Shown piece after piece: positions 10,601 to 11,979 of a DNA stretch of 64,000 bases (position 1 is its first letter; every line of letters starts with the position of its first letter). This DNA is from Prevotella sp. GTDB taxonomy: Bacteria; Bacteroidota; Bacteroidia; Bacteroidales; Bacteroidaceae. Both the position numbers and the translations under genes were made by a program. Location: contig SUYI01000002.1 of NCBI GenBank assembly GCA_015060485.1, forward strand, positions 124,001 to 188,000, read 5' to 3'. Below the pieces are notes generated by a model. That model did no database searches, was not told the DNA's origin, and worked only from the letters and a program-made list of their open reading frames with translations.

Positions 10601-11979
10601 GAAAACACATTGAACTGACGCCCGTGGGCTATGCCATGACGGAGTTTCTGGTCAATCGCAACTATGCTGATAAGTGGAAGCTCATCTCCTCGGGTGTGGG
10701 TCATCATATCCACGAGAGCCGCTGGCTCAGGGATAGCACGTACCTCGACCAGATTGTCCGCACGTGGTACAAAGGCAACGAGGGCAAACCTATGGCAAAG
10801 CTTACCAACTATTCTTCATGGATAGCCCACTCGCTGTGGCAGCGCCACTTGGTGGACGGTCGCAAACAGTGGTACATCGACATGCTGCCCTCGTTGGAGT
10901 GGGAGTATAACCATTGGGAAACGACGCACACCCGCTCCGTCACCGTTCCCACGGTGTCCGGCGATTCCGTCGCCGGAACCTCCGCCTCCCTCTACTGGCA
11001 GGAAGACGTTCGCGATGCGATGGAGGAGACCATCAGTGGCGGACGCAAGAAGAAGTACCTGCGCCCCAGCATCAATGCATACATGTACGGCAACGCGATG
11101 GCCATTGGCAACATCTGCGCTCTTGGCGGTTTTGCCGCCAAGGCCCAGACGTATTTCGCCAAGGCTAACGCCCTTCGCGAAGCCGTCCACGCCAAGCTCT
11201 GGAACGAAGACCACGCGTTCTTCGAGACCCACCGCATTGACTCCTCATCGAACGTGCGCGAAGCCATCGGTTTCATGCCTTGGTATACCCACATGGCTAA
11301 GGACGAGGCGAAATACGCTGTCGCCTGGCTTCAGGTTGGTGACCCCGAAGGTTTCTCTGCTCCTTACGGACTAACCACTGCCGAGCGTCGCCATCCTGAA
11401 TTCCGCACACATGGTGTGGGCAAGTGCGAATGGGATGGTGCCGTTTGGCCCTTTGCCACCAGCCAGACGCTCACAGCCCTTGCCAATTTCGCCAACGACT
11501 ACACCGCCCGTCCTGTGCCCAGCGGTCAAAGTGTGCCCAGCGGTTTTGCCGCTGGGGTTCTCTCCCTCGATTCCCTCTACTTCGCCGAACTCGAAAAGTA
11601 CATGCAGAGCCAGCACATGCGAGGCAAACCCTACATCGGCGAATATCTCGACGAGACCACGGGATATTGGCTCAAAGGCGATCAGGAACGTTCGCGCTAC
11701 TACAACCACTCGACGTTTAACGACCTGATGATTACGGGTCTTTGTGGTTTGCGTCCCCGTCAGGATAACATCATCGAGGTCAACCCCCTGCTGCCTAAAG
11801 ATAAATGGGACTACTTCTGCCTCGACAATGTGCTCTATCATGGTCACAACCTCACCATCCTTTGGGACAAGGACGGTTCCCGCTACCATGCAGGCAAGGG
11901 CCTCCGCGTTTACGTCGACGGCAAACTTGCAGGCCTGCGCGACACCCTCGGCAGGCTCATCGTCGAGCATGCATTATAG
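7696..11979 (+). CDS. Multidomain secreted glycoside hydrolase: GH43-like propeller, sialidase-like propeller, concanavalin-like region, C-terminal (alpha/alpha)6 domain
   Basis: RDPSIIRTPDGMFHLVWTSSW and WAPELFWDD; second propeller with SKDGYTWS; C-terminal WYRWWTLRKH...WQEDVRDAMEE...WDGAVWPFATSQTL. Confidence 0.7.
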   Translation: MMKRFCSFFLLLTVCLMVSAQQKVYISTSFHEPATDGLRFIYSRDGWTWQQVDGIWLKPEVGNQRVMRDPSIIRTPDGMFHLVWTSSWRGDRGFGYACSKDLVHWSEQRFIEVMTDTSTVNVWAPELFWDDVKKQAIIIWASCIPGKFPDGLEEHRNNHRLYYTTTKDFKTFAPTKLMIDPGFSCIDATLVKRAKNDYVMVLKDNTRPERDIKVAYAKSPYGPWSKASEPFTGKMMEGPTVLKLDEQIVNSKSSNSKSGWLIYYDRYRLFDFGAHYTKDFVTFEDVSDQTTIPPLHKHGTIFEADETILQGLLNAKKIHYSGKTLSNPNRHDGGLSPVVGVHNIQIMRANREQRSEANGNGWTYNHQPMMAYWNNQFFVHYLCDPKDEHVPPSHTLLQTSKDGYTWSTPLVLFPEVQVPEGFQKPNRPEKAHDLIAIMHQRVGWYVSKSGQLWALGNYGVAFDKKDDPNDGNGMGRVIREVRKDGTLGPIYFIYLNHTYKSYKTYFPFYTKADKATRQACEEILANPRYRMQWVEEADREDPLIPLHKEYKAYCDYTLPDGQIASLWKHALTSTSADGGLTWAQPVERAKGFVNSNAKIWGQRLSDGTYATIYNPSEFRWPLAISLSKDGYEYTTLNLVQGEVPPMRYGGNYKSYGPQYVRGIQEGNGVPKDSDLWVTYSMNKEDMWVAHIPVPVQTEAHNHADSTEFTVGKISDLATWNIHSPVYAPVSLNDGWLTLSDSDPFDYARVERKIPATKELKVSFDLRASQNDKGLLQIEFLDAHGTACSRIELTDEGLMRCKGGARYGGLDRYEPNTTYHIEAVLSVSKRMIEVFINGKKAGQRMFFAPVEAIERVMFRTGSERRFPDVDTPADWDGVLDNAGDKAPTATFAIASVCTVPVGSANGDGAFLRYDDYKHYVDYFNTMEDENIVQAIPNSKAWEWMMQNVPLFDCPNKAFEEMWYYRWWTLRKHIELTPVGYAMTEFLVNRNYADKWKLISSGVGHHIHESRWLRDSTYLDQIVRTWYKGNEGKPMAKLTNYSSWIAHSLWQRHLVDGRKQWYIDMLPSLEWEYNHWETTHTRSVTVPTVSGDSVAGTSASLYWQEDVRDAMEETISGGRKKKYLRPSINAYMYGNAMAIGNICALGGFAAKAQTYFAKANALREAVHAKLWNEDHAFFETHRIDSSSNVREAIGFMPWYTHMAKDEAKYAVAWLQVGDPEGFSAPYGLTTAERRHPEFRTHGVGKCEWDGAVWPFATSQTLTALANFANDYTARPVPSGQSVPSGFAAGVLSLDSLYFAELEKYMQSQHMRGKPYIGEYLDETTGYWLKGDQERSRYYNHSTFNDLMITGLCGLRPRQDNIIEVNPLLPKDKWDYFCLDNVLYHGHNLTILWDKDGSRYHAGKGLRVYVDGKLAGLRDTLGRLIVEHAL
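8435..8470 (+). repeat. In-frame heptamer array (AAATAGT x5)
   Basis: aaatagt aaatagt aaatcgt c aaatagt aaatcag, encoding part of DEQIVNSKSSNSKSG. Confidence 0.75.
10387..10410 (+). repeat. In-CDS 8-5-8 hairpin element, GTG CCCGTTGG TTCTG CCAACGGG
   Basis: Perfect 8-bp arms; encodes V-P-V-G-S-A-N-G. Confidence 0.75.
10954..10977 (+). repeat. In-CDS 8-5-8 hairpin element, GTG TCCGGCGA TTCCG TCGCCGGA
   Basis: Perfect 8-bp arms; encodes V-S-G-D-S-V-A-G. Confidence 0.75.
11515..11556 (+). repeat. In-CDS 8-5-8 hairpin element with a preceding half copy
   Basis: GTGCCCAGCGGTCAAAGT then GTG CCCAGCGG TTTTG CCGCTGGG; encodes VPSGQSVPSGFAAG. Confidence 0.75.

What the first reader, a model, noticed from the sequence alone, without database searches (positions are those of the whole stretch)
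11515..11556. 8-5-8 hairpin element in coding sequence with covarying stems and fixed reading phase
GTG CCCAGCGG TTTTG CCGCTGGG occurs here after a half copy. Related 24-nt elements occur at 10387 (CCCGTTGG/CCAACGGG), 10954 (TCCGGCGA/TCGCCGGA), 14979 (GTCGACGG/CCGTCGAC), 23953 (CCCAGCGG/CCGCTGGT) and 45572 (CCCAGCGC/CCGCCGGG). Stem sequences change on both arms, the 5-nt loop is kept, and all six are in the same codon phase (VPxGxxAxG-like). This resembles a palindromic protein-coding element, as in Rickettsia RPEs, but is shorter.
Basis: seen in the sequence. Interest (0 to 1): 0.88.

Follow-up and report, generated by a model that had tools for sequence, protein, structure and literature searches.

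The report
Coding hairpins tied to REP transposases
A rumen Prevotella genome carries about a hundred tiny 21-base DNA hairpins, mostly written in frame inside protein genes, whose stems may have any sequence but whose loop and leading tag match those of a hairpin pair inside a REP-type transposase gene, which points to that enzyme as the thing that recognises and probably spreads them.

Summary
The window holds 11 tagged copies ((A)STGTG + 8-bp stem + TTYNG loop; at most one stem mismatch) against 0.3 in shuffled sequence. The genome has about 100, and about 40% of sampled Prevotella-genus genomes have hits; nearly none lie outside the genus. Stem length is exactly 8 and loop exactly 5. All eight pairs covary. 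Of 116 sense copies, 109 share one codon phase, but antisense and intergenic copies exist, so this is a DNA element.

The key finding: a divergent, unannotated RAYT (TnpA-REP, HUH transposase) clade carries inverted pairs of the same tagged hairpins inside its own ORF. Both members usually share tag and loop; their stems differ. All 24 genomes with this clade have dispersed hits, against 71 of 226 others. Loop dialect clusters on the RAYT tree. In G231 the dialect of the RAYT pair equals the dialect found genome-wide.

Best reading: an intragenic, stem-free REP family. Copies arise by small in-frame insertion and, at some native sites, in place with compensatory changes. Mobility itself is inferred.

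The parts
9820..9846 (+). ACTGTG + GGCAAGAT-TTCAG-ATCTTGCC, in glycoside hydrolase gene 7696-11979
   Evidence: native (non-inserted) site whose stem covaries between species: GGCGAGAT/ATCTCGCC, GGCAAGGT/ACCTTGCC
10384..10410 (+). ACTGTG + CCCGTTGG-TTCTG-CCAACGGG, same gene
   Evidence: length-variable hot spot in orthologs, other species carry sense and antisense hairpins here
10951..10977 (+). ACGGTG + TCCGGCGA-TTCCG-TCGCCGGA, same gene
   Evidence: lies in a ~45-nt in-frame insertion absent from nearly all orthologs
11116..11142 (+). degenerate tag + CTTGGCGG-TTTTG-CCGCCAAG, same gene
   Evidence: native site, covarying stems CTTGCTGG/CCAGCAAG and CTTGCCGA/TCGGCAAG in other species
11515..11525 (+). 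half copy: GTG + CCCAGCGG (left arm only)
   Evidence: in L183/L184 this arm begins an interrupted copy
11530..11556 (+). AGTGTG + CCCAGCGG-TTTTG-CCGCTGGG, same gene (the reported element)
   Evidence: in-frame insertion relative to other species; the sister L183 has GCGTTGCG-AATTG-CCGCTGGG at the same place
12997..13023 (+). ATTGTG + CGCAAGGA-TTCTG-TCCTTGTG, in alpha-L-rhamnosidase gene 12196-14616
   Evidence: one mismatch; left arm and loop rewritten relative to L183/L240
14976..15002 (+). CCCGTT + GTCGACGG-CTCTT-CCGTCGAC, in metH-like gene 14643-17510
   Evidence: 12-nt insertion relative to L183/L240; atypical loop
16147..16173 (+). AGTGTG + CCGACGAG-TTCAG-CTCGTCGG, metH-like gene, out of the common phase
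   Evidence: same hairpin in L183 (TTCTC) and L240 (TTTAG) without insertion
23950..23976 (+). ACAGTG + CCCAGCGG-TTTAG-CCGCTGGT, L-fucose isomerase gene 22618-24597
37613..37639 (+). AGTGTG + GTCAGCGA-TTCTG-TCGCTGAC, GH95 gene 36623-39022
   Evidence: (third best of the genome)
45569..45595 (+). CCTGTG + CCCAGCGC-TTCTG-CCGCCGGG (two mismatches), sufD-like gene 45293-46744
57618..57656 (+). half copy (GTG CCAGGCAG TTCTG) overlapping TCTGTG + GTCGTCGA-TTTGG-TCGACGAC, gene 56913-59870

Best explanation
The elements are a REP-type family: short tagged hairpins that are the substrate of a RAYT (TnpA-REP, HUH-tyrosine ssDNA transposase). SHOWN: a fixed tag ((A)STGTG in this genome), an exactly 8-bp stem of almost free sequence, an exactly 5-nt TTYNG loop, and about 100 copies, mostly in frame inside genes. 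SHOWN: a specific RAYT clade carries an inverted pair of such hairpins inside its own ORF, between the HUH and Tyr motifs, and the tag and loop of that pair follow the RAYT lineage. INFERRED: the RAYT binds the folded single strand by tag, stem geometry and loop, so stems can drift as long as both arms change together. INFERRED: it inserts the 21-nt (seven-codon) hairpin next to a tag-like sequence, IS200/IS605 style, in either orientation. INFERRED: copies survive mainly where the peptide (VPSGFAAG, TVLGDSVAE and the like) is tolerated in surface loops. Once present, pairing is restored between arms, either by selection for a working substrate or by hairpin-templated repair, which gives compensatory, often amino-acid-changing, substitutions.
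For: Geometry: maximal stem exactly 8 with loop 5 occurs 60 times in 1 Mb of ortholog loci, against 9-15 for loops 6-9. Covariation: 96.2% of cells paired against 63.9% shuffled, 295 double-changed cells against 72. Distribution: 99 copies in G000 at E <= 0.1, 95 of 250 genomes of the genus with hits, 1 of 148 others in the order. Insertions: clean 21-nt insertions in L210 and, antisense, in L191; a ~45-nt insertion at 10957. RAYT link: about 20 of 27 genes of the clade carry antisense + sense copies inside the ORF, mostly with matching tag and loop. 24 of 24 clade genomes have hits against 71 of 226 others (p = 1e-11); with >= 5 hits, 18 of 24 against 21 of 226 (p = 4e-12). Loop class on the RAYT tree, hairpin region removed: 8 changes, minimum 7, shuffled mean 11.9, none of 200 as low. 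In G231 the RAYT pair is TYCGTG/TTTYC, and 17 of 18 hairpins elsewhere have ..C loops, 16 of 18 CGTG tags; G000 has 14 of 16 ..G loops. The protein is RAYT-like: NCBIfam REP_Tyr_transpos 4e-7 (below cut-off), invariant HxH and YIxxNP, N-terminal fold like ISDra2 TnpA. Literature: TnpA-REP subclass 2.4 has REPs inserted in frame in its own gene (PMC6006769); TnpA-REP can require loop and tag yet tolerate stem swaps (PMC8266576).
Against: No transposition event or strain-level presence/absence pair was seen. G000's own two clade RAYTs (C72: TCTGTT/TTTTG; C20: CGGGTG and ACGGTG/TTCAC) do not exactly match the commonest G000 tag (ASTGTG). 21 of 39 element-rich genomes lack a clade RAYT above the threshold; many are incomplete MAGs, and G120 has another RAYT clade with such hairpins. 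G121's RAYT pair (CCCGCT tag) has no dispersed copies. The association test ignores shared ancestry, and several G231 copies are in tandem. Some copies are native sites without insertion, which simple transposition does not explain.
Confidence: 0.78

Rival explanations
1. Post-transcriptional RNA element: an mRNA hairpin (TTYNG loop, AGUGUG tag) bound by a lineage-specific RNA-binding protein, kept by selection on transcripts.
For: Copies are 4:1 sense over antisense; loop and tag are fixed; compensatory changes occur at conserved sites.
Against: About 27 antisense copies, most with perfect or near-perfect stems, keep tag and loop on the non-coding strand; the same site carries sense copies in some species and antisense in others; inverted pairs sit inside transposase genes; Rfam has no match.
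Confidence: 0.08
2. DNA-uptake-like or other cis signal spread by molecular drive through homologous recombination, with dialects per lineage; RAYT genes merely share the signal.
For: In-place origins and dialects are typical of uptake sequences (own knowledge); copies favour one coding phase.
Against: Uptake signals are fixed words, here the stem is free; copy number is low (~100); no reason for inverted pairs inside each RAYT with a matching dialect.
Confidence: 0.05
3. Mutational by-product: quasi-palindrome correction by template switching makes perfect hairpins in coding DNA without any protein partner.
For: Native sites with perfect arms and amino-acid-changing compensations; a known process in bacteria (own knowledge).
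Against: Does not give exactly 8-bp stems, a fixed 5-nt loop, a tag, or lineage dialects; stems of 9 or more with loop 5 are not enriched.
Confidence: 0.06
4. Rickettsia-type palindromic element (RPE): a selfish coding repeat without a known transposase.
For: In frame, in unrelated genes, phase-biased.
Against: 21 nt rather than ~100-150 nt; no conserved stem sequence; a transposase gene carries the same hairpins.
Confidence: 0.03

Closest known systems
REP sequences and RAYT/TnpA-REP (REPtrons), especially TnpA-REP subclass 2.4 (PMC6006769)
   Same: Small tagged hairpin in ~100 copies; HUH-Tyr transposase of the same genome; hairpins inserted in frame inside the transposase gene between HUH and Y motifs; Bacteroidetes.
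   Different: Mostly inside protein genes, not extragenic; stem sequence free; tag TGTG/CGTG/GGTG and others instead of GT[AG]G; protein falls below Pfam Y1_Tnp detection and has an extra C-terminal domain.
CGTC-tagged REPs (PMC3733652)
   Same: 8-9 bp stems, 4-5 nt loops, 4-nt tag.
   Different: Fixed stems and tag CGTC; not tied to this protein clade here.
Rickettsia palindromic elements (RPE)
   Same: Palindromes translated in frame in many unrelated proteins.
   Different: Much longer, with conserved sequence; no RAYT pair.
IS200/IS605 transposon ends (ISDra2, IS608)
   Same: Hairpin plus 5' guide tetranucleotide recognised as ssDNA; catalytic domain fold.
   Different: No left and right end pair bounding a transposon.
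Coding palindromes of Nematomorpha mitochondria (PMC6649704)
   Same: Inverted repeats kept inside coding sequence with both arms translated.
   Different: Up to 284 bp, no tag or loop rule, mitochondrial.

Membership tests
REP (RAYT-associated) | Short palindrome (about 20-40 nt) in high copy number | tested here: met
   27 nt with tag; 99-111 hits in G000
REP (RAYT-associated) | Conserved 5' tetranucleotide tag GT[AG]G or CGTC at the hairpin foot | tested here: not met
   A tag is present and conserved, but it is TGTG in G000 and CGTG, GGTG, AGTG or CGCT in others
REP (RAYT-associated) | Associated tnpA-REP gene bearing or flanked by the same repeats | tested here: met
   Inverted pairs inside the RAYT ORF; extra copies flank G234:C12
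REP (RAYT-associated) | Family-specific stem sequence | tested here: not met
   All eight stem pairs vary with compensation
REP (RAYT-associated) | Extragenic location | tested here: not met
   145 of 165 copies lie in predicted genes, 118 of them sense
REP (RAYT-associated) | Recognised, cut and rejoined by the cognate TnpA-REP | not testable with these tools
   Needs a biochemical assay
RAYT / TnpA-REP protein | HUH motif, YIxxNP Tyr motif, Y1 fold | tested here: met
   Invariant HxH and YIxxNP; ISDra2 TnpA fold match; NCBIfam hit below cut-off
Rickettsia palindromic element | ~100-150 nt conserved palindromic unit | tested here: not met
   21 nt, stems not conserved
Rickettsia palindromic element | In-frame translated insertion in unrelated genes | tested here: met
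mRNA regulatory hairpin | Only the transcribed strand carries the motif | tested here: not met
   About 27 antisense copies

The most novel reading that the evidence does not exclude
Besides inserting copies, the system writes hairpins into existing coding sequence: a RAYT with an HUH domain and a C-terminal DprA-like (ssDNA-handling) domain cuts or folds near-matching native sites and one arm is recopied from the other, so host proteins are edited in place and stems co-evolve at the expense of the amino-acid sequence.
Probability: 0.22. Interest if true: 0.92.

Novelty: new variant of a known kind. Interest (0 to 1): 0.76.

Why it matters
How REPs spread, and what RAYTs recognise, is a long-open question. 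Here nature supplies many RAYT lineages, each with its own tag and loop printed inside its gene, and at least one whole genome written in the matching dialect. Recognition can therefore be read off and tested by swapping tags and loops. The stem rule (any sequence, if paired, exactly 8 bp) would show structure-only recognition. In-frame seven-codon units in metabolic enzymes also show how a mobile DNA element can settle inside proteins and become a steady source of new peptide segments in rumen Prevotella.

Tried and rejected
Rfam: no match. Pfam Y1_Tnp: misses the relevant RAYT clade. First RAYT candidates (G000:C34, C68) carry other hairpin classes (8-4-8 CAGCGGCG; 8-3-8 GAGGC) and were rejected as partners of this element. 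GC-skew or replication-strand orientation: no clear bias. Blind dialect test in G121: no dispersed copies. G066: too few copies to test. Profile comparison of the RAYT C-terminus with DprA: not significant by sequence, though fold search favours it.

Full report
Check of the observation. Perfect 8-5-8 palindromes number 15 in the 64-kb window; other loop lengths give 4 or fewer, and codon-block shuffles give 1.1 on average and 3 at most. With a TG tag and a TT loop there are 8 perfect and 11 near-perfect copies against 0 and 0.3 expected. Additional copies lie at 9826, 11122, 13003, 16153, 37619 and 57636. The hosts are a glycoside hydrolase, an alpha-L-rhamnosidase, a MetH-like methyltransferase, L-fucose isomerase, GH95, a SufD-like protein and an unannotated gene at 56913-59870.

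Genome and genus. The window is part of a 3.94-Mb draft genome (G000); orthologs of the host gene come mostly from rumen Prevotella MAGs. A covariance model from 20 copies finds 111 hits in G000, 99 of them at E <= 0.1. Of 250 genomes of the genus, 95 have hits and about 39 have five or more; of 148 other genomes in the order, one has hits. The distribution is patchy: many same-genus genomes have none.

Anatomy. Consensus in G000: A(C/G)TGTG, eight paired bases, TT(C/T)NG, eight paired bases. Maximal stems of exactly 8 with a loop of exactly 5 are four- to fivefold over neighbouring loop lengths; 9-bp stems are not enriched, and the base after the stem is rarely the one that would extend it. 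All eight pairs covary: 96.2% of cells paired against 63.9% for shuffles and 33-60% for slid partners. Among 116 sense copies with a defined phase, 109 have GTG as a codon. About 27 copies are antisense and about 20 intergenic; the antisense copies keep tag and loop. Gene calls here come from a simple codon-score caller, so the sense and antisense counts are approximate.

Origin of copies. The window gene 7696-11979 has 46 readable sequences in the comparison. The copy at 10957 lies in an insertion of about 45 nt absent from nearly all of them. At the site of 9826, L210 carries a clean 21-nt insertion in sense and L191 one in antisense; L240 and L241 also carry antisense copies. By contrast, the hairpins of G000 at 9826 and 11122 sit in native, ungapped sequence. 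Across species the stems there change on both arms together (GGCGAGAT/ATCTCGCC, GGCAAGAT/ATCTTGCC, GGCAAGGT/ACCTTGCC; CTTGGCGG/CCGCCAAG, CTTGCTGG/CCAGCAAG, CTTGCCGA/TCGGCAAG), often changing amino acids. At 11536 the sister L183 (85-91% identical over the region) has GCGTTGCG-AATTG-CCGCTGGG where G000 has CCCAGCGG-TTTTG-CCGCTGGG. Insertion and in-place change therefore both occur; the second is unexplained by simple transposition.

The trans partner. RAYT-like proteins of this genus carry, between the HUH motif and the strand before the Tyr motif, a hypervariable stretch bounded by hairpins whose class depends on the RAYT lineage. One clade (G000:C72 and C20, G218, G213, G228, G234, G057, G231 and others) carries the tagged 8-5-8 class: about 20 of 27 genes have antisense plus sense copies inside the ORF, usually sharing tag and loop while the stems differ. 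Presence of the clade and of hits are associated: 24 of 24 against 71 of 226, Fisher p = 1e-11; for five or more hits 18 of 24 against 21 of 226, p = 4e-12. These tests do not correct for relatedness, and the in-gene pair itself can supply one or two hits. Loop class needs 8 changes on the RAYT tree built without the hairpin region (minimum 7, shuffled mean 11.9, none of 200 as low).

Blind dialect tests. G231's RAYT pair reads TYCGTG with TTTYC loops. Elsewhere in 267 kb of G231, 17 of 18 TT-loop hairpins end in C and 16 of 18 have CGTG, while G000 has 14 of 16 ending in G and no CGTG. Several G231 copies are in tandem; counted as about nine independent sites the contrast remains. G121 (CCCGCT tag) had no copies beyond the in-gene pair, and G066 too few to test. 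G000's own RAYT pairs do not exactly match its commonest tag, so the active partner in G000 may be lost, missing from the draft, or broader in specificity.

The protein. Pfam does not recognise the clade. NCBIfam's REP-associated tyrosine transposase is the only relevant hit, below cut-off. HxH and YIxxNP are invariant. The predicted structure (pLDDT 78; hairpin-coded region disordered) matches ISDra2 TnpA at the N-terminus and DprA/ShosA at the C-terminus. The DprA likeness is not significant by profile comparison and is a lead only.

Comparison with the known. PMC6006769 describes TnpA-REP subclass 2.4 with REPs inserted in frame in its own gene and Bacteroidetes subclass 2.6 with atypical structures. 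PMC8266576 shows that TnpA-REP may require loop and tag while tolerating upper-stem swaps. PMC3733652 reports CGTC REPs with 8-9 bp stems and 4-5 nt loops and some intragenic REPs. The present family works like a REP but fails three usual REP features: GT[AG]G tag, fixed stem, extragenic place. It is best filed as a new variant. I found no paper describing it in Prevotella in the library searched.

Verdict. Real, non-random, DNA-level, and tied to a RAYT clade by three lines (in-gene pairs, co-occurrence, dialect). Mobility and the rewriting of native sites are inferred.

Noticed in passing
G000:C88:10574-12594 (L023, L096): A PatB/MalY-like aminotransferase gene carries about a dozen copies of the element, including tandem 36-nt and 42-nt units at the N- and C-terminal ends and copies inside the gene.
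   Followed up: partly
L186, L187, L195, L206, L241; G000:C88:10584: A second tagged class with 8-4-8 geometry and TTCT-like loops; RAYTs of G185, G211 and G007 carry inverted pairs of this class.
   Followed up: partly
L131, L137, L210, L105, L114: A third hairpin family, 8-3-8 with GCGAC-TCN-GTCGC-like stems and a GTTCRGTA-like tag, also covarying.
   Followed up: no
G000:C72 RAYT (L308) and relatives, residues ~235-400: C-terminal domain with DprA/ShosA-like predicted fold fused to the HUH domain; sequence profile support is weak.
   Followed up: partly
RAYT genes L316, L339, L346, L348, L349: A further hairpin AATCACGG-TTTCC-CCGTGATT (or near-copies of it) at the conserved NHGFP motif of several RAYT subclades.
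   Followed up: no
G231:C94 RAYT (L347, L319): This RAYT ORF contains a long AGTNGN-type repeat (collagen-like low complexity) and tandem tagged hairpins nearby.
   Followed up: no
window 62445 and 62489: Two identical 8-3-8 hairpins TATTCCCA-CGC-TGGGAATA 44 nt apart, unrelated to the family.
   Followed up: no
G000:C20:1005-1418: Orphan short DprA-like (SMF) ORF next to a restriction/methylase-like gene.
   Followed up: no
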